Source: a virus. From it: a DNA stretch of 28,342 bases. The DNA lies in the IMG/VR virus record IMGVR_UViG_3300025674_006516, positions 1 through 28,342 of that record; one strand, written 5' to 3'. Both the position numbers and the translations under genes were made by a program. This document shows positions 13,003 to 28,342 of the stretch, piece after piece; the first letter of the stretch is position 1; the number at the start of each line of letters is the position of its first letter. The notes below the pieces were generated by a model. It did no database searches. It worked only from the letters and a program-made list of their open reading frames with translations, and was not told the DNA's origin.

Positions 13003-13234
13003 TTTCTTTCTCCTTTGTGATTGGATAAATGTCTTTCATTCTGGTTGTCCAAATGGCATTTTTATAATAAACAAAGCCCCATTTTGGATTTTTGCTATCT
13101 ACTTCCCAAAACAATGCTTTTACAGGTTTCTTGATCTTGATAAATCGATCGAGTATTGAACTATTTTTTACATTTAATTCTTGGAGCAAGTAAGCATCTT
13201 GTGGTATGTGTACCAGTTCTCCTTTCATTATCAT
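12992..13234 (-). CDS. Small 'GELV' beta-barrel-like protein
   Basis: 80 residues. ATG 13234 forms an ATGA junction with groEL; a second ATG at 13228 is possible. It begins MIMKGELVHIPQDAY and has strands KALFWEVDSKNPKWGFVYYKN. By pattern it is the fifth member of the GDLV set. Co-translation with groEL suggests shared expression rather than a shared function. The tail KEKENAS encodes the next SD. Confidence 0.65.
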   Translation of the reverse strand: MIMKGELVHIPQDAYLLQELNVKNSSILDRFIKIKKPVKALFWEVDSKNPKWGFVYYKNAIWTTRMKDIYPITKEKENAS

Positions 13235-14808
13235 TTGACTTGTATGATCCCATAGTTAGTGGTGATTAGGGTGCCAGCACAAGAAGCAGCGTTCTTTAAT
13301 GCAGACTTTGTTACCCTCACTGGATCTAAGATACCACGCTCATAAAGGTTTGTCAAGGTGCCGTTGCGGAAATCATAGCCCATATCAGCAGGCTGATCAA
13401 TAACGTGAGCAAGCAAAATATCTTCACTTTTTCCACCATTTCTACACATTTGCCGGAATGGAGCTTGGCACGCTTGCTTAACTATAGCCATGCCGATAGC
13501 CTGTTCATCATGATCGATCTTTATAGCAACAGAATCGCTAGCACGCAACAAGGCAGTGCCGCCGCCGCCAATGACACCCTCCTCTTGTGCAGAGCGAACT
13601 GCCTCAAGTGCATCTTCAATACGGTGCTTGCGCTCAGTCATTTCCACTTGGGTTGCACCACCAACATGAATAACAGCAACACCCGAAGAGAGGCGCACAA
13701 TTCTACCTTGAATACGCTCACACTCTGCAAAGTTCTCTGTGCTTGCAATCTCGCTCTTTAGGCTCTCAATACGAGTTTCTACGGCTTCATAGTCACAGTT
13801 GCCGCCAACAAGAATAGAGCCTACCTTGGTGCTCTCAATTGACTTGGCCGCGCCCAACTGATCAAGCGTAGTGGTCTGTAGCTTCTGTCCTGACTCTCGG
13901 GTAATGAATGCTGCACCAGTCGAGATTGCAAGGTCAGATAGCAAGTTACGTCGCTCTTCGCCATAAAATGGAGCTTTGATTCCTGCAATCTTTAGAGAAC
14001 CACGCATAGCGTTCATAATCATTGCAGCTAGAGCTTGGCCCTCGATATCTTCTGCCACTATGACAAGTGGGCGAGATTCTCTAGCCACCAACTCAAGAAT
14101 GGGTAGGATTTGCTCAACCTGAGTAATCTTGTAGTCTGTGACCATGACAAGAGGCTCTTCATACTGCATCACGTTGCGTCGCTCATCGTTGACAAATGCA
14201 GATGCACAATAGCCAGCAGGAAAGCGGAAGCCCTCTGTAACATCAATAGAGGTTTCCATAGAGCGAGATTCTTCGATTGTGATTGAGCCGTCCTGTCCTA
14301 CCTTGTCCACAGCCAAAGCAATGAGGTCCCCAATAGTAGAATCATTGTTGGCAGAAATAGTGGCAATGTGCTTGATGTCATCAATACTAGTGACTGGTCG
14401 CGCCATTTCTGTAAGGTTGTTACAAATTTCTGATACTGTAGCATCGATACCTCTCTGTATTTCGATTGGAGAAACACCCGCAACGATGTGTCGCTGTGCT
14501 TCATTCAGAATTGCTCTTGCAAGGACGGTGGCAGTCGTCGTTCCATCACCTGCGCTTGTGTTGGTTTCGTTTGCAGCTTGGCGAATAACTTGTGCGCCAG
14601 CGTTCTCAAATTCATCATCTAGCTGAACGAAAGTCGCGACTGTAACGCCGTCCTTGGTTGCAAAGGCTGGCTTGTCCTTCTCTTGCAACAAGACCGTTCT
14701 ACCCTTGGGTCCGAGAGTAGAAGATACATAGTCAGCCAATGTGTTGGCTCCGTTTAATATCTTTTGTCGTAGTTCTTCGTTGTTAGCGAAGACCATTTTG
14801 TTGGTCAT
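13231..14808 (-). CDS. groEL: Chaperonin GroEL
   Basis: 525 residues, close to the usual ~545. The equatorial ATP site is intact: TLGPKGRTV (31-39), GDGTTTATVLA (87-97) with the catalytic Asp equivalent to E. coli D87, IEDALEAVR carrying the D398 equivalent, and GGGGTALL. The apical domain is present (FRFPAGYCAS; EPLVMVTDYKI). The C-terminus stops at LITTNYGIIQVK, so the GGM-repeat tail is absent. No groES is found in this window. Characterised phage chaperonins (for example of phages EL and OBP) are reported to fold substrates without a co-chaperonin, so the same may hold here. ATG 14808 has CGGAGGACTT upstream and sits behind a consensus promoter. Confidence 0.95.
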   Translation of the reverse strand: MTNKMVFANNEELRQKILNGANTLADYVSSTLGPKGRTVLLQEKDKPAFATKDGVTVATFVQLDDEFENAGAQVIRQAANETNTSAGDGTTTATVLARAILNEAQRHIVAGVSPIEIQRGIDATVSEICNNLTEMARPVTSIDDIKHIATISANNDSTIGDLIALAVDKVGQDGSITIEESRSMETSIDVTEGFRFPAGYCASAFVNDERRNVMQYEEPLVMVTDYKITQVEQILPILELVARESRPLVIVAEDIEGQALAAMIMNAMRGSLKIAGIKAPFYGEERRNLLSDLAISTGAAFITRESGQKLQTTTLDQLGAAKSIESTKVGSILVGGNCDYEAVETRIESLKSEIASTENFAECERIQGRIVRLSSGVAVIHVGGATQVEMTERKHRIEDALEAVRSAQEEGVIGGGGTALLRASDSVAIKIDHDEQAIGMAIVKQACQAPFRQMCRNGGKSEDILLAHVIDQPADMGYDFRNGTLTNLYERGILDPVRVTKSALKNAASCAGTLITTNYGIIQVK

Positions 14809-14862: not shown

Positions 14863-15564
14863 TTACATAATCTCATCGGCAAGACCATACCTAACTGCTT
14901 CTTCAGCAGAAAGGTAGATGTTTACCTTTTCATTAAGTAGTTTCTCCAACTTCTTGCGAGTAAACTTTGTGTTCTCAACCATAGCGGTTATATAATCCTC
15001 TTGTAGTTGCTGGATTGCCTCAAGTTCGTTTGCAAGGTTCGGTAGTGTGCCAAAGTTTCCTGCTGCGACATTGTGAATCATCACGCGGCAGTTGCGACCA
15101 ATCTTACGCTTACCCTTGGTTCCTGCCGCGAGGAGCAGAGTACCTGCGGACATAACCTTACCAACACCGATGGTGTGGATTTCGGTTTCTTCTTTAACCT
15201 GTTGCATAACATCATACATTGCAAACATATCGTCAGCAGAGCCGCCATATGTGTTGATATAAAACTCAACTGGCTTCTTTTCTTGGCCCTCTGGGAGAAG
15301 ACGATTCATTTCGTTGAGATAGAGTAGCGCTTGGGTAAGCTCAGCGATCTTTTCATCCTCAACAGAGGAATAAAGACCAATAACTCTAAGGTCAGGCTCC
15401 TTGGGTGGTGGCTCGCCACCGCCAAGCAACTGCTCAAGGCTGATTGTCTTTACTGTTTTTGTTGGCTGCTCAGAAGAAGACTCTGAGGGGTCTGCTTCTT
15501 TTGATACTGCACCGTTGGGTGGAAGAACAATATCGAGGATCTTACCGATTATCTTTCGCATCAT
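14863..15564 (-). CDS. clpP: ClpP-type serine protease
   Basis: 233 residues from ATG 15564 (ATGA overlap, AAGGAG 8 bases upstream); the longer frame is rejected. After a ~55-residue low-complexity extension comes the ClpP core: VIGLYSSV, EFYINTYGGSADDMFAMYD (oxyanion-side GGS), VMSAGTLLLAAG with nucleophile Ser139, RVMIHN with His164, and SAEEAVRYGLADEI. The position of the catalytic Asp (ERDRFLSA in E. coli) reads EKVNIYLSA, so Asn215 replaces it. Listeria ClpP1 naturally carries the same Asp-to-Asn change. No ClpX/ClpA gene is seen; it may use host unfoldases or act in capsid processing, as ClpP-like proteases do in some phages. Confidence 0.88.
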   Translation of the reverse strand: MMRKIIGKILDIVLPPNGAVSKEADPSESSSEQPTKTVKTISLEQLLGGGEPPPKEPDLRVIGLYSSVEDEKIAELTQALLYLNEMNRLLPEGQEKKPVEFYINTYGGSADDMFAMYDVMQQVKEETEIHTIGVGKVMSAGTLLLAAGTKGKRKIGRNCRVMIHNVAAGNFGTLPNLANELEAIQQLQEDYITAMVENTKFTRKKLEKLLNEKVNIYLSAEEAVRYGLADEIM

Positions 15565-15983
15565 TTGTTTCTCTCCTTTGAAAACATAATGGCTGGGTAC
15601 TTGTGATTGTTTAGGAATCTTTGCGAGCCTCTCCAATCGTCAAATTCAATAAACTGCCTGAACATTTCAGGGTGTGCCTCAAGTAAATAGGTGATTGCAT
15701 TGTCTTTGAAAGTTTCGATTAACTTATCGTTGTCTTTCTTTAATTTTTCATATTCCTTGTGTCCATAAGACTTGTCATTCTTGCGAAGTGCCTCAAGTCT
15801 ATTTATGTGTGCGTAGTGTAAGTATTCTAACCCTTTGTTTATTATTGTCAAATAGAAAACATAAGATGACTTCATAACAACGGCTGTGATGCGTGTTGAT
15901 CTTAGAAAGTAAACGCCCGAGCACGTCATCCAGCCAAGCAAAAAAGAACATCCCGCTATCACTATGCCTAAAATTAAATTCAT
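15561..15983 (-). CDS. Membrane-anchored hypothetical protein
   Basis: 140 residues; ATG 15983 with TATGGAGAAACA upstream. One N-terminal hydrophobic helix (3-28, ILGIVIAGCSFLLGWMTCSGVYFL) is followed by a charged helical domain (LEALRKNDKSYGHKEYEKLKKD) and a small C-terminal part with several aromatics. It is the first gene after the promoter at 16031 and is coupled to clpP by ATGA. It may share the proteostasis transcript; function unknown. The terminal SKERNK is the clpP SD. Confidence 0.7.
   Translation of the reverse strand: MNLILGIVIAGCSFLLGWMTCSGVYFLRSTRITAVVMKSSYVFYLTIINKGLEYLHYAHINRLEALRKNDKSYGHKEYEKLKKDNDKLIETFKDNAITYLLEAHPEMFRQFIEFDDWRGSQRFLNNHKYPAIMFSKERNK
15824..15851 (-). promoter_or_regulatory. 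Possible internal promoter ahead of clpP
   Basis: TTGACA (15851-15846), 16-base spacer, TAGAAT (15829-15824) inside the membrane-protein gene, 260 bases before clpP. Good hexamers, but coding context makes chance possible. Confidence 0.4.
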
Positions 15984-16063: not shown

Positions 16064-16720
16064 TTATTTTGAGGCAAGCTTGTGAAAAATACGTTCAGCT
16101 AGCTTGTTCGCTATGTTTTCCTTCTTCTTCTCGCGAAGTAGACGCATGGAAACGCGACGGGCGACTTCTGCAACTATATCTTCTTCGCCCATTACCTCTT
16201 CGTCATCTTCCATCTCGGCGTCCATTTCTTCTTCGCCACCGGCCTCGGGAGCGGAATCGGCCATATCTAGTTCATCACCACCTTCTTCGGCCTCAACTTC
16301 ACCCCCCATTTCTTCATCGCCACCAACCTCTACATCGGCGTCTAGACCAAGAAGATCAGCTAGCTTGTCAACTATATCAGCAAACTGCTCTTCCTTGCCG
16401 CCGTCGGGGCCTGCGCCCATATCCATGTCCATATCCATGTCCATGTCTGCGGCTGGCTCTTCGCCCATATCCATATCCATTTCAATATCACCACCGGGTT
16501 CGGCGTCCATTTCCATGTCCATTTCCTCACCATCTGGGGGCATGGGGGCTTCATCGCCCTCTTCCTCTTCCATCATATCATCGCGCATTCCGGGGACATC
16601 TTCCTCTTCGTCGCGCATTCCGGGGACATCATAGCCGCCCATTTCCTGTAGAGGCTTGATGTTGGCCAACTTCATGAATTGGCGAATTTCTGATTCTGAT
16701 AGTAGTGTCTTACGAGCCAT
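16064..16720 (-). CDS. Highly acidic Asp-Met repeat protein
   Basis: 218 residues; ATG 16720 behind AAGGAGATATAAAACC. A conserved-looking head (MARKTLLSESEIRQFMKLAN) recurs in marine phage proteins as I recall them. It is followed by VPGMRD twice (32-37, 42-47), a long D/E/M/G-rich centre with an alternating DMDMDMDMDM run (92-101), an amphipathic insert (FADIVDKLADLLGL), and a basic helical tail (RRVSMRLLREKKKENIANKLAERIFHKLASK). The acidic middle with helical ends suggests a disordered scaffold- or DNA-mimic-like protein; neither is shown. The repeats probably arose by slippage. Confidence 0.75.
   Translation of the reverse strand: MARKTLLSESEIRQFMKLANIKPLQEMGGYDVPGMRDEEEDVPGMRDDMMEEEEGDEAPMPPDGEEMDMEMDAEPGGDIEMDMDMGEEPAADMDMDMDMDMGAGPDGGKEEQFADIVDKLADLLGLDADVEVGGDEEMGGEVEAEEGGDELDMADSAPEAGGEEEMDAEMEDDEEVMGEEDIVAEVARRVSMRLLREKKKENIANKLAERIFHKLASK
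16413..16480. repeat. CATGTC/CATATC simple repeat encoding the Asp-Met run
   Basis: Near-perfect tandem hexamers (ccatgtccatatccatgtcc) on the plus strand, coding alternating Asp-Met on the minus strand. The pattern resumes in degenerate form around 16500-16525. It is prone to in-frame length change. Confidence 0.7.
16581..16630. repeat. 20-bp direct repeat inside the acidic-protein gene
   Basis: tcgcgcattccggggacatc occurs at 16581-16600 and again at 16611-16630, a 30-bp period coding the duplicated VPGMRD. Confidence 0.85.
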
Positions 16721-17034: not shown

Positions 17035-17372
17035 AGGTCTGGAAACTCCTGTGCGATTAGGTCAAAAATATTTTCTTTTTCAGCATCATCAAGTAGACCC
17101 CAATCTTCTAGTGCGTCTGTTCCCTTTTTTCTCAGTTTATGAGACTTGGAAAAGCGTTTACGACTTAGGAGTTTATGCTCTAAGACATAAGAGTCCAAAA
17201 AAGCCATCAAGTTTGGTTCCTCTACCAAGATGCCATCAATAACAGCACGAAAAAACTGGGAAGCTGCGAGTTTGTTATGTCGCAACCTCACCAGCAATCT
17301 CGCATGATCATCATCCGAAACCCAAAAGCGGATAGATTTTACGTCTTGTCCGTATTTTGGATCATCTGGCAT
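17031..17372 (-). CDS. Possible ribbon-helix-helix protein
   Basis: 113 residues from ATG 17372 (TAATG with the upstream stop, GAGGAAG before it); an upstream GTG is rejected. The segment SIRFWVSDDDHARLLVRLRHNKLAASQFFRAVIDGILVEE has the strand-helix-helix spacing of MetJ/Arc-type ribbon-helix-helix domains. A basic stretch follows (RKRFSKSHKLRKKG). The neighbour is a sigma region 4-like protein, so the pair may be regulatory. The RHH call rests on pattern only. Confidence 0.6.
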   Translation of the reverse strand: MPDDPKYGQDVKSIRFWVSDDDHARLLVRLRHNKLAASQFFRAVIDGILVEEPNLMAFLDSYVLEHKLLSRKRFSKSHKLRKKGTDALEDWGLLDDAEKENIFDLIAQEFPDL

Positions 17373-18394
17373 TACCACTTCCTCGTTTGGATATGGGTCC
17401 TACTCTCTCCAAGTCCAGCAGAAGTTTGCTGAACAAACTGGACCTTGGCTTGTAGTTCCGAGATCGAACGAACACCAGAATAGGACAGTCCAGAGCGGAT
17501 ACCACGCTCCAAATCTCCGAGAACATTACAAACCTTACCACGATAAGGTACAGTAGAGGAGATTCCTTCAAGCGAAGAATACTTACCTCTCCAATCGTGT
17601 TGTGCTTCCTTGGAAGCCATCCCTCGATAAGTCTTGTACTTTGTTCCATCTGCTCTGGTATGTACCGGCCCCGGCGTCTCCTTGGTGCCCGCCAATAGAG
17701 AACCCAACATAACAGCGTCCGCTCCTGCGGCAAGAGCCTTTACAATGTCGCCAGAGTTGCGTATACCGCCGTCTGCAATGATCGTTACGTTGCGGTCAGT
17801 TCTGGCACAATCAAAGATTGTTTGCAAGCCGGGATGACCATGCCCTGTCTGCACCCTCGTAGAACAGATAGAGCCACCCCCAATGTTGCAGCGAACAGAG
17901 TTTGCTCCCCAATCTGAAAGGTCATTGATACCCTGTAGGGTAGCTACATTGCCTGCCATAATATGCAGGTCGTCGCCAAAAGCATCACGCAGCCCGCGCA
18001 GGGCTTCTCTCATCATGATGTGGTGCCCATGCGCCACATCAACGCAAATAAAGTTTCCGCCTGCGGAAAGGCACATATCTGCTCTCTCCAAATAATCCCC
18101 ACCAATACCAACAGCGAAACCAATATTTTCTATTTCATGGGTTGTAGCGTGTACAACCAACTGGGCTTGCTCTCTTGGGGTATTGTATCTATGAATGATA
18201 GAACACCCGCCTGCGGCGGCCATTGAACCAGCCATAAGGTCTTCCGAAATCGTATCCATTGGAGACGATATGATCGGCAGACCAAGCTTGAGTCCATTAC
18301 CAAGGTCGGTTGAGATATCTACTTCTGACCGAGAGCGAATGTCAGAGTATTGTGGCAGGAGCAGGACATCATCATAAGTTAAAGCTTTTTGCAT
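17372..18394 (-). CDS. guaB: IMP dehydrogenase/GMP reductase family enzyme without CBS domains
   Basis: 340 residues; ATG 18394 with AAGAGGTAAT. TIM-barrel landmarks: [17 protein letters not shown] (6-22), SSPMDT (43-48), the phosphate and active-site loop [11 protein letters not shown] with Cys177, [36 protein letters not shown], and C-terminal [16 protein letters not shown] oxidises IMP to XMP, the committed step to GMP; GMP reductase does the reverse branch. SSPMDT and the C-terminus favour IMPDH, whereas the short flap ([13 protein letters not shown]) and overall length also fit GMP reductase. The Bateman (CBS) regulatory domains of typical IMPDH are absent, so it may escape nucleotide feedback. 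It pairs functionally with PurA at 23452. Confidence 0.85.
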
Positions 18395-22451: not shown

Positions 22452-22480
22452 ATCTTATCCTTTTATGCTGCCGCTGTCAA
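22452..22480 (-). promoter_or_regulatory. Sigma-70-type promoter in the UVDE gene end
   Basis: TTGACA (22480-22475), 17-base spacer, TAAGAT (22457-22452). The -35 is formed by codons TTG ACA of the terminal Leu-Thr of the UVDE gene. Confidence 0.82.
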
Positions 22481-23419
22481 GCGTGCGATATCGTTTTTTT
22501 GCAGACCAAATAGTGCAAGCTCCTTTGCCTTGGCCTCAATCATCACATCGAGGTCGTAGCCGTAGTCATCGATAGGTCCGTTGACGTAATCTGAGTGGGC
22601 ATGTGGACGAATCTTGGCGTCCTTCTTTTCTTCTGCTCTCGACTCTGAATAATGGACTACTGGCTTGATATCTCCCCATGTTGAGATTGCGATTTCGAGC
22701 GCCTCTCTTTCGCTAATACCGCCAGTACAAAAACCATGATGATGGTAATCAAAGACAATCGGAATACCAGTCCGTTCAAATAGACCTTCGTAGAGTTCAA
22801 TAGTTGAGTAAAGCGATTCACGGTCATCATTCTCCACAGTCAGTCTAGACGTAACCGATTCCGATAGTCGTTCAAAGTTCCTTACAAAAGTATCTAGTGC
22901 GACCGGCTTGTTTCCGTATGCTGCACCGACATGAATGTTGATCTTTGCGTAGTGATCTCGGGGCAAACCAAGCATGTCGAAGAACTCGCCATGAATCTCC
23001 AAGTCTCTCTTGGTGTTCTGAAACACCTTCTCTTTTGGAGAAGCCAGCTTGTTGAATGGTCCGGGATGAGAAGTAAGTCGAATACCATGTTCTCGGGCAT
23101 AGTTGCCTGCCTTCTCACATGCTTCAAGGATTGCTTCATAGTCGGGCATGTCGTGAAGCTGGTACTCCGAAGCCCAAGGAAAGACGTTGGAGGACAGACG
23201 GAAGAACTTGATCCCGTGCTCAACATTCCATTCAAGAATCTTTTGGAGATCGAGTACGTTTAGGAGAGACAAAGAGGACGCATACTCGATCCCCTTCTCT
23301 TCAAAAGTTCTCTTGATCATGGAGCGATTAGTGGTGATTCTATCATTCTTGTGTCCACCGTAATCTTGTGGGTTTGAAAGCTGCATGTTGATGCAAGCAT
23401 ATCCATAGTTCTTCGGCAT
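22463..23419 (-). CDS. uvsE: UV-damage endonuclease (UVDE)
   Basis: 318 residues, close to bacterial UVDE length; ATG 23419 with TTGGAGGACAG. The family's TIM-barrel signatures are visible: NYGYACINMQL (4-14), FFRLSSNVFPWAS (72-84), LTSHPGPFNKL (115-125) with metal-ligand His118, NIHVGAAYGNK (161-171), TVENDDR (194-200), FDYHHHGF (223-230) and RPHAHSDYV (271-279). UVDE nicks DNA 5' of pyrimidine dimers and abasic sites, starting repair independent of UvrABC. Cellular copies are scattered, and a phage copy implies strong UV exposure of virion or infected cell. It has its own promoter at 23441. Confidence 0.92.
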   Translation of the reverse strand: MPKNYGYACINMQLSNPQDYGGHKNDRITTNRSMIKRTFEEKGIEYASSLSLLNVLDLQKILEWNVEHGIKFFRLSSNVFPWASEYQLHDMPDYEAILEACEKAGNYAREHGIRLTSHPGPFNKLASPKEKVFQNTKRDLEIHGEFFDMLGLPRDHYAKINIHVGAAYGNKPVALDTFVRNFERLSESVTSRLTVENDDRESLYSTIELYEGLFERTGIPIVFDYHHHGFCTGGISEREALEIAISTWGDIKPVVHYSESRAEEKKDAKIRPHAHSDYVNGPIDDYGYDLDVMIEAKAKELALFGLQKNDIARLTAAA

Positions 23420-23440: not shown

Positions 23441-23469
23441 AGTGTAGCCCGTCAGGCGGCTGCTGTCAA
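23441..23469 (-). promoter_or_regulatory. Sigma-70-type promoter in the purA gene end
   Basis: TTGACA (23469-23464), 17-base spacer, TACACT (23446-23441). Codons TTG ACA encode the Leu-Thr of the C-terminal LTAAA of PurA. Confidence 0.82.
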
Positions 23470-24459
23470 GGGGTTTTCTTCACTGATTGAAGCGGGGTTG
23501 TCCGAGAAATAAATCTTGTCTACTCCCATTTTCGGACCAAATTCTTCTTCAAGATAAGTACGAAAATGGCGTTCACCATGAATATACCTGTCGGTTGTTC
23601 CCCAACAACCAACTTGCCTTAGAACGTCCATCTTGTTCACAACAAGCCGATTAACCCCATTCATTGCGATAGCTTGGTGAATTTCTTCGACATTTAGCCA
23701 GTTACACTGCCTAACACGTCCCGTGGTGGCTCCAAACTCTTGCCCGACCTCTTGGATTCGATCAAAAACTTCTCCTTCTGGCTGGAACTTGCGCTTGCCT
23801 ACATAGGTTTCGTAAGCCTTGATAACGCCCCAGACATTACGAATAGAGCGTGGATTAATGCCATTTTGGATTGCGGCAGCGACACCGGTATGTGAGGAAG
23901 TGACATACGGATAGTCACCCCAATCTGGGTCAAGCCAGAAGCCCTGTGCGCCTTCCATAAGGATTACGGTATCGCCTCTTAGTTCTTCATAGATATCGAC
24001 TATGAAAGGAAGAAGAGAAGATACGTCACAGGCGCGAATGCCGCTACGAGCATACTTATCACGATAAGCGGGCCCGTTACCGGTTCTAGTTGTTCCAATC
24101 TTCTCGTCAACGCCGTCTTCGGCTTTATGTTGTTCGGTGATAACATGAGCATTTCCTGCAATCCTTAAGTTTTGTCGCACGGGGATTCCGTGGGATTCTA
24201 AGTAGTCAATCTCTTTATGTAACTTCACTGGATCTACCACACAACCGCTGCCGATGACAGATGTGACTCCGAAAAACACGCCTGCGGGGATGTGGTGGGT
24301 TACAAACTTTTTTCCGTTGTGAATGATCGTGTGTCCTGCATTGCAGCCACCATTAAATCGAACACAATGGGTATATTCCCCACTCTTTAATAGGTGGTGT
24401 GTAACTTTACCCTTGCCTTCGTCTCCGTGCTGGAGACCTAGCACAATATCTGTAATCAA
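23452..24459 (-). CDS. purA: Adenylosuccinate synthetase, short form
   Basis: 335 residues against ~430 in most bacteria, a length nearer to archaeal PurA and phage PurZ. TTG start at 24459 with a strong AAGGAGGAAAC. Motifs: GLQHGDEGKGK (P-loop with the catalytic Asp retained), CNAGHT, GTTRTGNGPAY, EGAQGFWLD...YPYVTSS, GATTGRVRQCNW (RVRQ instead of the usual RRRR) and VNKMD (guanine recognition). It joins IMP and Asp with GTP to form adenylosuccinate, the first step to AMP. The retained Asp separates it from classical PurZ, in which this residue is Ser, but a PurZ0-like dGMP activity cannot be ruled out by eye. Ends LTAAA because a promoter overlaps its stop. Confidence 0.9.
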   Translation of the reverse strand: MITDIVLGLQHGDEGKGKVTHHLLKSGEYTHCVRFNGGCNAGHTIIHNGKKFVTHHIPAGVFFGVTSVIGSGCVVDPVKLHKEIDYLESHGIPVRQNLRIAGNAHVITEQHKAEDGVDEKIGTTRTGNGPAYRDKYARSGIRACDVSSLLPFIVDIYEELRGDTVILMEGAQGFWLDPDWGDYPYVTSSHTGVAAAIQNGINPRSIRNVWGVIKAYETYVGKRKFQPEGEVFDRIQEVGQEFGATTGRVRQCNWLNVEEIHQAIAMNGVNRLVVNKMDVLRQVGCWGTTDRYIHGERHFRTYLEEEFGPKMGVDKIYFSDNPASISEENPLTAAA

Positions 24460-24621: not shown

Positions 24622-25311
24622 TTACAATCCATATACCTGTTTCAAAAACACTTGAACAAGTCTATCCCTCTCGGCATCCGTATCACACTCCGCATACGCA
24701 TAATTGAAGCTAGCTTTTTGAGCTTGAATTTGGCTATCCAATTCTTTGGCTCTCGCCTTCATCCATCTTGTTTGTTGGTTATAGTTATTTGGTAGCCTGA
24801 TTTTGAATCTGTCTGAGAGGTCTAGAAGGAAGAAATAGCGCTCCTCGTCCAAGGCTTGCTTCGCCTGCTTGAACATCTCTAATCTATCACGCCTCTCGTC
24901 ATCTGTCAAGCCCATGACCTTATCGGGGTGCAGATGGACGGCTAACTTCTTGAAAAGTTTTTTGAAAATACTGTGCATTTCATGTTCTTCTTGGTTTATT
25001 GGAGTGTTGTTATCTTCTTCGTTATCTATGTCGCTCACACTACCCGGTAAACCACTGTCAGTTATCATTCTGGTTTCTTTCTCCTCCTTTCTTTCGTGGT
25101 TTTGCTTTCCTTTTTTGACCGTTGTTGACAAGCCAACACGCTTTTTAACATCATCAAGATCTATATCATTATCCTCACAATATTTTCTCACATGATTGTG
25201 AAAAATGGGATTGTATTCATCGGCCATTTCTTTAAGCAACTCTAGTTCAGTGTGCTTGTATCTCATCTCATTTACAGCCCTGTGCCATTTAACCAAATCT
25301 TTTGTTCGCAA
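24622..25311 (-). CDS. J-domain (DnaJ-like) protein
   Basis: 229 residues. The start taken is TTG at 25311, 9 bases after GGGAGG; an overlapping ATG at 25316 opens only a 14-codon frame. Residues about 115-165 hold a J-domain-like core: IFKKLFKKLAVHLHPDKVMGL with HPD at 128-130, then a helix RRDRLEMFKQAKQALDEE. The N-terminal ~100 residues are charged and low-complexity (KKGKQNHERKEEKETR; DNEEDNNTP), and the C-terminus is a long helix. J domains stimulate DnaK ATPase, so the protein may recruit the host Hsp70; no zinc-binding or client domain is seen. Its ribosome-binding site is buried in a hairpin. Confidence 0.75.
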   Translation of the reverse strand: MRTKDLVKWHRAVNEMRYKHTELELLKEMADEYNPIFHNHVRKYCEDNDIDLDDVKKRVGLSTTVKKGKQNHERKEEKETRMITDSGLPGSVSDIDNEEDNNTPINQEEHEMHSIFKKLFKKLAVHLHPDKVMGLTDDERRDRLEMFKQAKQALDEERYFFLLDLSDRFKIRLPNNYNQQTRWMKARAKELDSQIQAQKASFNYAYAECDTDAERDRLVQVFLKQVYGL

Positions 25312-25319
25312 AACATGAA

Positions 25320-25346
25320 GCCTCCCACCTTAAATAGATGGGAGGC
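25320..25346 (-). promoter_or_regulatory. 11-bp hairpin sequestering the J-domain gene SD
   Basis: Minus-strand RNA GCCUCCCAUCU / AUUUA loop / AGGUGGGAGGC forms 11 consecutive pairs (one G-U). The 3' arm contains GGGAGG, the only SD for the TTG at 25311. The bases after the stem (CUUCAUGUUUUG) are not a clean U-run, so a classical terminator is less likely. Confidence 0.75.
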
Positions 25347-25352
25347 ATGTGT

Positions 25353-25496
25353 TTAGCGCTTACCCTGACCTCGGTAACGCTTCTTGTAGTGCTTGTTCCC
25401 GCCATTTGGACCGGGCTTTCCGGTCTTTGTTCTCGGGCTCATACCAATACTTGTCTTTTTCTTAACTGCTGTCTTCTGTACGGTCTTCTTAGCCAT
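25353..25496 (-). CDS. Small basic protein, 47 aa
   Basis: ATG 25496 with a perfect AAGGAGG six bases upstream, 16 bases after dnaE. The product is very basic and Gly/Lys/Arg-rich: MAKKTVQKTAVKKKTSIGMS ... NGGNKHYKKRYRGQGKR. Small proteins ending in '(N)KHK.+.YK.YRGQG+' are common in large phages as I recall; function unknown, probably nucleic-acid binding. The excellent SD and position make it a confident gene despite its length. Confidence 0.8.
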   Translation of the reverse strand: MAKKTVQKTAVKKKTSIGMSPRTKTGKPGPNGGNKHYKKRYRGQGKR

Positions 25497-25512: not shown

Positions 25513-28342
25513 TTAGCCTAGCAATCTAAAGTTTCTGTAAACGGATCTAGTGGAGAAACCCCACTTTGGATCATATTCTAGTCTTGACATGTAAGGGCGA
25601 TTTATGTGAATCCTATCCTTCTTGGGATCCACTCCCCAACACTTAATCTTTTCTGTTTCGTTATTGGAGTCAATCACTTCCACAATCCAAAAATCTTTGC
25701 CCTTCTTTGTCTTCTTTGGGATAACCTTGCGTGGAATAAACCAGCAGAGTTGTAGCTCTTCATCAAATTCAGAGATAGGTGGAATAAACTTTTCTTTTAG
25801 TTTCTCGATTGTTTCTGTACTGATAACCAAGTTCATGGGGAACACACCAGTCAAATCAGTCTTAAACTGAATGATCTCTTCCTCGGAAAAGTCGCCCTCT
25901 CCTCTATACAGATCAATGTTGCCATGAAACTTTTTCTTAGTCTTGGGCCTATCAACCACTGATGCAGACCAGAAGTGTTTACGACCAGTAAATCGATCAT
26001 CGATAAGAGAATCCATGGCCCCAGCCCTACAAAGAGCATCAAGAGCTTTCTTATTTAGTTTGGCATATTTTACTTCTTCTCGGAAGAGAAAATCCTCAAT
26101 ATCTGTAAATGGGCGATTGTTTAGAACCTGCTCCATCGCAGACTCACCAAAACCCTTGATACTTGTGAGCGGCTGAATGAGCGTCTTGCCGTCCTGACCA
26201 ATCTCCCAAGTACGACCAGAAGTGTTCACATCGACAGGCGCAATCTTGTAGCCAAGAGACTTCGCCAAGTTGATAGCGTTCTCCTTCTTGCTCTCGGGCT
26301 CTTTGTCGAGGAAAGCAGCAAGCCACTCTGCCTCAAAGTAAGTTAGGAGCCAAGCACACTGATAAGAAATGATAGAATAGGAAACAGCGTGGGACTTGTT
26401 GAAGCCATAGCCAGAGAAGTATTCAAACTTCTCCCATAGATCCTGCGCTTCAGCCCTAGCGATGCCCTTGTCAACACAGCCATCAATGAACTTCTTGTGA
26501 ATCCTATCCTTAACCTCAAAACCCTTGCCCGTCCCCTTTTTAGTTAGGAGCTTACGAAGCAAGTTGCCTTCGTCAAGAGTTAGTTCCTTGCCGAGTGCAT
26601 GAGCAATCTTGGCGATTTGTTCCTGAAAGATCAAGAAACCAAACGTTTCTTCGGTGATCTCCTGAACCTGTGGAGTGAGATACTTGATATACTGAGGGCT
26701 TTCCTTAGCGTCAATGTAATCCTCGTGGACGTTGGCCGATAGAGGGCCGGGACGATAGATAGAAGTGATAGCGGAAACATCAATAATGTTGTTTGGCCTC
26801 ACGCGCTCGGCAAAGTTCTGTGCTCCATCCTCGGTGAACTGGAATGTACCTACAAAGTTACCCTTGTGAAAAACATTTTCATAGACTCTCGCATCATCGA
26901 GGTTGATAACATCGGGATGCAGGTTCTTGTCGTAGAAGTCCTTGACCTGCTTGAACGTCGGCTCTGCAATACCATGATGTCGCTTTAAGATCAACTCAAT
27001 AGCAGTCTCCATCATGGCAAGAGTCGAAAGTCCGAGAAGATCGAACTTAATGAAGCCCATTGGCTCCAAGTGACGGACGTTCTGACCCTCAGACCAAGGA
27101 GTCTGACGAACACCCTTGGAGTTGATAAGGGGCATATTCTTATCCAAGTCCTCGGCAATCACAACACCGCCAGCATGACGGGAGGCAGACCGCACCTGAC
27201 CGACAAGAGCCTTAACATGCGTCTTGACATTTGGATACTTGCCCAAGAATCCCTTGAGAGAATCAGAGAACTCAAGAACCTCCTGCCAAGTTGGATTGTA
27301 AAGACCAGCCTTGATACCGTGCTTTGCCTTAGCAAGCGGAGTTGCTTCCTTGATCATTGCATTTGTGACCAAGTTAACTTCGCCGAACGGAATACCATAC
27401 AACTTTGAGATATCCTTGATCAGTGACTTCAACTGTAGGGTGTTCCAGTTTGAGATTGGAGCAACACAATCCTCGCCCCACAACTCAATCAACTTATCCT
27501 TCAACTCCATAGGGCGGCTGATGTCGTAGTCAATGTCGGGGTAGTCCTTGGCGTCGGAACGCAAGAAGCGAGAGAATAGAAGGTCGTACTTGATTGGATC
27601 AACCTGCGTGATGCCGAGAGCATAAGCAACAAGTGAGCCAGCAGCAGAACCACGACCCGGTCCAGCAAGCATCATTGTGTCTGTAACATCAACGATTGCT
27701 TTCATAGTCAAGAAATACTTTGAGAAGCCTCGGTCATCAATAACGTGGAGTTCTTCTTTTAGTCTCGCAAGGTACTGCTTGTTGTCAGCAAGGCCCAACT
27801 TACGGAGTCCCTCAAGAGAGAAGTTGATTAGCGCCTCAGTCGCGGTGTGTCCAGCAGGAACAACGAACGAAGGAAGACGAACAGTGTTGTCGGGAAGAAA
27901 GTTCTCAATGCGATCGAACGCAATGCGATGTGTCTCTTCGATAGAACGCAACACAAGGTCGTCATCGTACTCAGCGCCACAATCGGCTGAATACTTCTTG
28001 TAACTCTCCCACATTTCGTCGCCGTTCTTGGGGTAGAGTTCGTAACCAATCTCATCAACAGAGACAGGTAGTTCGCTCTCGGTGTCAGCCCACTGCGGGC
28101 GACCCTTGCCAAGCCAGCCAAGACGCTTGTATAGTTCGCGGTCCTTCCAAGCATCACGATTGGGATAGTGCGAGTCTGCGGTCGAGATCACCTTGACGCC
28201 AAACTCGTCACAAACTTGAATGACAAACTTGTTGAGTTCATGCTGCTCAGGAACATTGTTCCACTGAATCTCTCCGTGCCAGCGATCACCAAACACATCA
28301 ACCATCTTGCGGGTTGTATCTCGCATAGCCTCAAGCACAGCC
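25513..28342 (-). CDS. dnaE: DNA polymerase III alpha subunit (DnaE-type), 5' end outside window
   Basis: The frame is open through the right edge; about 942 residues are visible, lacking most of the N-terminal PHP domain (its end remains: VISTADSHYP). Motifs: LAGPGRGSAAGSLVAYALGI (224-243), catalytic PDIDYD (267-272), RHAGGVVIA (388-395), FIKFDLLGL (429-437) with the third carboxylate, FQFTEDGA, YRPGPL, FQEQI, GYGFNKSHAVSYSIISYQ, and a helix-hairpin-helix-like LNKKALDALCRAGAMD. The C-terminal ~100 residues include an OB-like stretch (QLCWFIPRK, KDFWIVEVID). It is the likely replicative polymerase of this phage. The tau-binding end appears shortened. Confidence 0.95.
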   Translation of the reverse strand, partial: AVLEAMRDTTRKMVDVFGDRWHGEIQWNNVPEQHELNKFVIQVCDEFGVKVISTADSHYPNRDAWKDRELYKRLGWLGKGRPQWADTESELPVSVDEIGYELYPKNGDEMWESYKKYSADCGAEYDDDLVLRSIEETHRIAFDRIENFLPDNTVRLPSFVVPAGHTATEALINFSLEGLRKLGLADNKQYLARLKEELHVIDDRGFSKYFLTMKAIVDVTDTMMLAGPGRGSAAGSLVAYALGITQVDPIKYDLLFSRFLRSDAKDYPDIDYDISRPMELKDKLIELWGEDCVAPISNWNTLQLKSLIKDISKLYGIPFGEVNLVTNAMIKEATPLAKAKHGIKAGLYNPTWQEVLEFSDSLKGFLGKYPNVKTHVKALVGQVRSASRHAGGVVIAEDLDKNMPLINSKGVRQTPWSEGQNVRHLEPMGFIKFDLLGLSTLAMMETAIELILKRHHGIAEPTFKQVKDFYDKNLHPDVINLDDARVYENVFHKGNFVGTFQFTEDGAQNFAERVRPNNIIDVSAITSIYRPGPLSANVHEDYIDAKESPQYIKYLTPQVQEITEETFGFLIFQEQIAKIAHALGKELTLDEGNLLRKLLTKKGTGKGFEVKDRIHKKFIDGCVDKGIARAEAQDLWEKFEYFSGYGFNKSHAVSYSIISYQCAWLLTYFEAEWLAAFLDKEPESKKENAINLAKSLGYKIAPVDVNTSGRTWEIGQDGKTLIQPLTSIKGFGESAMEQVLNNRPFTDIEDFLFREEVKYAKLNKKALDALCRAGAMDSLIDDRFTGRKHFWSASVVDRPKTKKKFHGNIDLYRGEGDFSEEEIIQFKTDLTGVFPMNLVISTETIEKLKEKFIPPISEFDEELQLCWFIPRKVIPKKTKKGKDFWIVEVIDSNNETEKIKCWGVDPKKDRIHINRPYMSRLEYDPKWGFSTRSVYRNFRLLG

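What the first reader, a model, noticed from the sequence alone, without database searches (positions are those of the whole stretch)
25311..25346. Possible RNA thermometer or translational switch on a phage J-domain gene
An 11-bp hairpin with an AUUUA loop buries the whole GGGAGG SD of the J-domain gene, whose start is a weak TTG. One pair is a G-U that exists only in the minus-strand RNA. Heat-shock genes in bacteria are often controlled by SD-sequestering thermometers. Coupling control over a chaperone cofactor in a phage this way would be new to me. The stem is rather GC-rich, so a protein- or ribosome-operated switch or an attenuator is also possible.
Basis: partly seen in the sequence, partly recalled or inferred. 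Interest (0 to 1): 0.66.

Follow-up and report, generated by a model that had tools for sequence, protein, structure and literature searches.

The report
Late promoter nested in ribosome-site hairpin
In a group of uncultured viruses of bacteria, a stable RNA hairpin hides the ribosome-binding site of a chaperone-helper-like gene while the virus's own late promoter sits in the hairpin's loop, so the gene is probably readable only from the RNA made late in infection; this is the trick known from phage T4, found here in another phage group and on another gene.

Summary
In detail: an 11-bp hairpin (minus strand 25346-25320, loop AUUUA) buries the GGGAGG SD of the TTG-started J-domain-like gene. 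It is real RNA structure: 20 distinct homologous hairpins keep the stem, with compensatory changes. It is not a thermometer: the SD stays paired up to 70 C in silico. CTATTTA (25337-25331) is the 7-mer most enriched upstream of genes in the two largest related contigs. It mostly lacks a -35 box, precedes virion genes, and resembles the T4/Aeh1 late-promoter box. Transcripts from it should start inside the 3' arm, lack the 5' arm and expose the SD; read-through transcripts from the polymerase operon fold the hairpin and hide it. This is the T4 e/soc/I-TevI design. The hairpin accompanies the J gene, not the upstream gene. A second gene of these phages, an exonuclease, uses the same layout with a sigma70 promoter in the loop and no U tail. 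Overlapping terminator activity, or translational coupling (stop codon 3-7 nt before the stem), is not excluded. No transcript was mapped; late timing is inferred. New variant of a known kind.

The parts
25320..25346 (-). Hairpin: 5' arm 25346-25336, loop 25335-25331, 3' arm 25330-25320; 11 bp with one U-G pair
   Evidence: covariation in 14 aligned homologues
25331..25337 (-). CTATTTA, inferred late-promoter box; its first two bases form the top two pairs, the rest is the loop
   Evidence: CTATTTA or CTAATTA in 20 of 20 hairpins
25321..25326 (-). Shine-Dalgarno GGGAGG, wholly inside the 3' arm
   Evidence: hidden in read-through RNA at all temperatures computed
25324..25329 (-). Predicted late transcription start zone (6 nt after the box by analogy with T4, +1 near 25325); not mapped
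   Evidence: inference from T4 late promoter geometry (PMC2988020)
25312..25319 (-). T-rich spacer TTCATGTT between stem and start; weak terminator-like tail
24622..25311 (-). Controlled gene: J-domain-like protein, 229 aa, TTG start
25353..25496 (-). Upstream gene: 47-aa very basic protein (GGNK-YKKRYRGQGK); stop codon 6 nt before the stem
25513..28341 (-). DNA polymerase III alpha-type gene (start outside window), presumed source of read-through RNA

Best explanation
The 40-nt element is a combined promoter and ribosome-site lock. RNA read through from the DNA-polymerase/basic-protein genes carries both arms, folds the hairpin and hides the SD, so the J-domain gene is not translated from it. 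Late in infection the phage's late sigma factor recognises CTATTTA in the DNA of the loop; transcription starts about 6 nt further on, inside the 3' arm, so the late mRNA lacks the 5' arm, the SD is free and the J protein is made. Shown here: the hairpin, its covariation, SD burial, and the statistical identity of CTATTTA as a promoter-like motif upstream of virion genes. Inferred: that it is used late, the start site, that a gp55-type factor reads it, and that read-through RNA is silent.
For: CTATTTA ranks first of 12,398 7-mers for enrichment 12-60 nt upstream of starts in the related 191-kb and 70-kb contigs (33/66, p 1e-22), 77 against 9 on the other strand over five contigs. It precedes baseplate wedge, tail sheath and head-tail adaptor genes, mostly lacks a -35 box, and differs at two places from the Aeh1 late box (a/g)CTAAATA. 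A weak gp55-like ORF is present. All 20 distinct J hairpins hold CTATTTA (17) or CTAATTA (3) at the loop. Stem pairs covary: 97% of cells paired, score 0.354 against 0.173 shuffled, 0/500. The hairpin persists where the basic gene is absent (L108, L113, L116, L118) and is absent where the basic gene is not followed by J (L078, L085, L098, L100, L102, L103). Same layout at the exonuclease gene, with TTGACA-17-TATATT, -10 in the loop and GGAGG in the 3' arm, conserved with compensatory changes and no U tail. SD inaccessible in read-through RNA, far more accessible in a late-type RNA.
Against: No transcript data. The computed late leader still pairs partly elsewhere (SD bases on average 37% free at 37 C). 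A sister group (L117-L128) has the promoter box but no hairpin, so the lock is not universal. The stop codon lies 3-7 nt before the stem, which could let a terminating ribosome open it. Many members also score as weak terminators. The base before the box is usually A at other sites (85%) but T here.
Confidence: 0.7

Rival explanations
1. Intrinsic terminator at the end of the polymerase/basic-protein unit, with the late promoter and RBS of the next gene overlapping it. RNA polymerase from upstream stops at the stem, so J is silent early by lack of RNA rather than by lack of translation. Not exclusive of the best explanation.
For: First-listed terminator-like site of its half of the window; T4-T5 tails in L077, L079, L081, L091, L094; Carafa score above zero in 12 of 13 members scored; C-rich 5' arm and G-rich 3' arm like several ordinary terminators of these phages.
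Against: Scores mostly below the ordinary terminators (window 17.9 against 22-62); no U tract directly after the stem in L108, L092, L099; the sister hairpin at the exonuclease gene has no U tail at all; the stem is 3-7 nt from the upstream stop, where a ribosome would interfere; it does not stay with the upstream gene.
Confidence: 0.17
2. Translational coupling: the ribosome that finishes the upstream gene opens the base of the stem and frees the SD, so J is made early in proportion to the upstream gene, as well as from the late promoter.
For: The stop codon lies 3-7 nt before the stem whether the upstream gene is the basic-protein gene or the polymerase gene; the SD pairs with the basal part of the 5' arm, which such a ribosome would cover.
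Against: Compact phage spacing could give the same distance; coupling alone does not explain the promoter box in the loop; in the T4 precedents the read-through RNA is poorly translated.
Confidence: 0.1
3. RNA thermometer that opens on heating.
For: SD in a stem; J-domain proteins belong to the heat-shock world (established knowledge).
Against: Near-perfect GC-rich stem, SD closed to at least 70 C in silico; relatives have comparable stability, -14 to -26 kcal/mol.
Confidence: 0.01
4. DNA-level inverted repeat, an operator for a protein, with no RNA role.
For: Long inverted repeat centred on a promoter box.
Against: 12 G-U pairs and no A-C mismatches in the aligned J stems (partly explained by keeping the SD G-rich); stems differ widely in sequence, so there is no common protein site except the loop box.
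Confidence: 0.02

Closest known systems
Phage T4 gene e (lysozyme), soc and gene 49 leader hairpins (PMC3014915)
   Same: SD hidden in a hairpin of longer early RNA; late promoter placed so that late RNA lacks the 5' strand
   Different: Different phage group, J-domain-like gene, box CTATTTA instead of TATAAATA, box exactly at the loop of a long near-perfect stem with wide covariation
I-TevI, I-TevII, segB and Aeh1 mobE hairpins (PMC2988022)
   Same: Late-expressed gene buried in an early/middle unit, SD sequestered, promoter placed so that its RNA cannot form the hairpin
   Different: Those genes are homing endonucleases; here a conserved gene next to the DNA polymerase
Aeromonas phage Aeh1 late promoter (a/g)CTAAATA (PMC2988020)
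   Same: Eight-base box without -35 element, C at the second place; the CTAATTA variant differs at one place
   Different: Two T for A at the centre (ACTATTTA)
Tn10/IS10 protection from outside transcription (own knowledge, not looked up)
   Same: Read-through RNA folds and hides the start region, own-promoter RNA does not
   Different: Transposon end repeats, not a phage timing device

Membership tests
T4-type promoter-in-hairpin RBS lock | SD and/or start sequestered in a stable hairpin of upstream-initiated RNA | tested here: met
   (computed structure and covariation)
T4-type promoter-in-hairpin RBS lock | Late-promoter box inside the hairpin so that its RNA lacks the 5' arm | tested here: inconclusive
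   Box at the loop in 20 of 20 hairpins and motif statistics fit; promoter activity and start site not mapped
T4-type promoter-in-hairpin RBS lock | Gene translated from late RNA and not from early RNA | not testable with these tools
   needs infection or reporter experiments
T4-type late promoter | Single box near -10, no conserved -35, upstream of virion genes | tested here: met
   (by sequence statistics only)
T4-type late promoter | Phage gp55-type sigma factor | tested here: inconclusive
   253-aa ORF, weak match over nearly the whole profile, E 2e-4 per genome and 0.005 in the library scan
RNA thermometer | SD opens within a physiological temperature range | tested here: not met
Intrinsic terminator | GC-rich stem followed directly by a U tract | tested here: inconclusive
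   Good in some members, poor in the window, absent in L108, L092, L099
J-domain protein | DnaJ profile match with HPD motif | tested here: inconclusive
   HPD invariant; 12 of 15 members match at E<=0.01, window protein below Pfam cut-off

The most novel reading that the evidence does not exclude
This phage clade uses a general read-through-proof start module, with a promoter -10 box in the loop, the 5' arm upstream of the transcription start and the SD in the 3' arm, for genes of two promoter classes: the late-type box for the J gene and a sigma70 box for the exonuclease gene. It works as a translation insulator in genomes where most genes lie on one strand.
Probability: 0.5. Interest if true: 0.62.

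Novelty: new variant of a known kind. Interest (0 to 1): 0.52.

Why it matters
It extends the T4 lysozyme/I-TevI timing trick to a group of uncultured phages and to a chaperone-cofactor-like gene. It gives comparative evidence for the arrangement, points to a likely late-promoter box (CTATTTA) for the clade, and shows the same layout with a sigma70 promoter. If confirmed, it yields compact natural parts in which RNA from a built-in promoter is translated and read-through RNA is not.

Tried and rejected
Rfam gave nothing. tblastn in annotated phages gave no J relative. TATAAATA as late box: few copies and no bias to the coding strand. GTTACATTA as a second late box: rejected, it is the -10 of TTGACA-type promoters. 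A short ORF ATG..TAG across the loop in G1-G3: not kept in the window or L041. Start at ATG 25316 (14-aa reading frame): rejected, homologues use the TTG/ATG of the J frame. PDB profile search of the J family: no hit. Literature search for CTATTTA as a late promoter: no paper in the held library. Search for papers on a promoter within an SD hairpin with the words readthrough and phage: none.

Full report
The hairpin. On the minus strand the 47-aa basic ORF ends at 25353; after ACACAT comes GCCTCCCATCT-ATTTA-AGGTGGGAGGC (25346-25320), then TTCATGTT and the TTG start of the J-domain-like gene at 25311. The fold has -21 kcal/mol and z -5.6.

Homologues. The J protein has no match in annotated phages but relatives in uncultured viral contigs. 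Loci with about 40-70% identical J proteins carry a hairpin at the same place; 20 distinct ones were read. The stems differ greatly in sequence (for example CCCCCATTCT/AGAATGGGGG, CCCCTCAACT/AGTTGAGGGG, CCTCCTATCT/AGATAGGGGG) yet stay paired. On a 14-sequence alignment 97% of cells form standard pairs, five of ten pairs change on both sides, and the covariation score is 0.354 against 0.173 in shuffles (0 of 500) and at most 0.146 when slid (11-sequence version). The 14 were chosen to share one register of the stem; four relatives with the stem shifted by one base (G001, G002, G003, L087) and L084 and L099 were left out of this count. L092 and L099 have imperfect stems. The start is confirmed by alignment: homologues begin at the same residue, with TTG or ATG.

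The loop is a promoter box. In every hairpin the loop region reads CTATTTA (17) or CTAATTA (3) although the flanking stem varies. In the related contigs G001 (191 kb) and G002 (70 kb), CTATTTA is the 7-mer with the strongest enrichment 12-60 nt upstream of gene starts (33 of 66 sites, background 6.2%, p 1.4e-22, first of 12,398; gene starts from a simple ORF model), and over five contigs it occurs 77 times on the coding strand against 9 on the other. It is usually preceded by A (85%) and mostly has no -35 box, whereas GTTACATTA belongs to a TTGACA-type class. Genes behind it include a baseplate wedge protein, tail sheath and a head-tail adaptor. T4 late promoters have one box and no -35; Aeh1 has a/gC in place of TA at the first two positions (PMC2988020), that is (a/g)CTAAATA, which ACTATTTA resembles. 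A 253-aa ORF weakly matches the gp55 profile. I therefore call it the late-promoter box of this clade, by inference. In the window it also lies just upstream of the ORFs starting at 16720 and 10916.

Mechanism. By T4 geometry the late RNA would start near 25325, inside the 3' arm, with the SD at its 5' end. The computed SD accessibility is essentially zero in read-through RNA at 4-70 C and much higher in the late-type RNA. This matches what is established for T4 e, soc, 49 and I-TevI (PMC3014915; PMC2988022).

What the hairpin belongs to. In L108, L113, L116 and L118 the basic gene is missing and a hairpin still precedes J; where the basic gene is followed by something else (L078, L085, L098, L100, L102, L103) there is no such hairpin. 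A sister group (L117-L128) has CTAATTA upstream of J but no hairpin. So the promoter is more widely kept than the lock, and the lock goes with J.

A second case. In G001 and G002 the most stable SD-burying leader is that of an exonuclease gene (phrog_107), the J leader being second. There a TTGACA-17-TATATT promoter has its -10 in the loop, GGAGG in the 3' arm and TAATCT-ATG after it, with no U tail. Some 28 distinct homologous leaders keep it, with paired changes such as CCACCC/GGGTGG to CCAGCC/GGCTGG and CCTCCC/GGGAGG. This makes SD locking with a nested promoter the common denominator and termination an optional extra.

Open points. Terminator scores of the J hairpins are mostly positive but lower than those of ordinary terminators in G001. 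The stop codon lies 3-7 nt before the stem, so coupling to the upstream gene is possible. No RNA data were available. G-U pairs outnumber A-C mismatches (12 to 0 in J, 17 to 2 in the exonuclease set), in favour of RNA-level pairing, but selection for a G-rich SD arm alone would favour the same bias.

Noticed in passing
L160 (G001 183925-183962) and L163-L212: Exonuclease gene with a sigma70 promoter whose -10 lies in the loop of an SD-burying hairpin, conserved in nearly 30 distinct leaders; remote cousins L228, L235, L239 have TTGACC/G..TATAAT in a similar hairpin.
   Followed up: partly
window 16059-15990, minus strand: Perfect TTGACA-17-TATAAT promoter overlapping the base of a 15-bp hairpin (AATAACCATCTGGGG), conserved in G001 19431, G002 19762 and G003 15287 ahead of a membrane-protein-like ORF.
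   Followed up: no
L058 (G001 about 40-55 kb): A run of small genes behind a uniform early-type promoter CTTGACAG-17-GTTACATTA.
   Followed up: partly
window 25353-25496: Family of 46-49 aa very basic proteins ending GGNK-YKK-YRGQGK, next to polymerase and J genes in many uncultured phages; function unknown.
   Followed up: partly
window 13231-14808 and 14857-14830: Phage GroEL-like gene directly behind a perfect sigma70 consensus promoter, unlike the J gene, which has the late-type box.
   Followed up: no
window 17372-18394, 22463-23419, 23452-24459, 14863-15636: Phage-borne IMP dehydrogenase/GMP reductase-like, UvdE-like, adenylosuccinate synthetase and ClpP-like genes.
   Followed up: no
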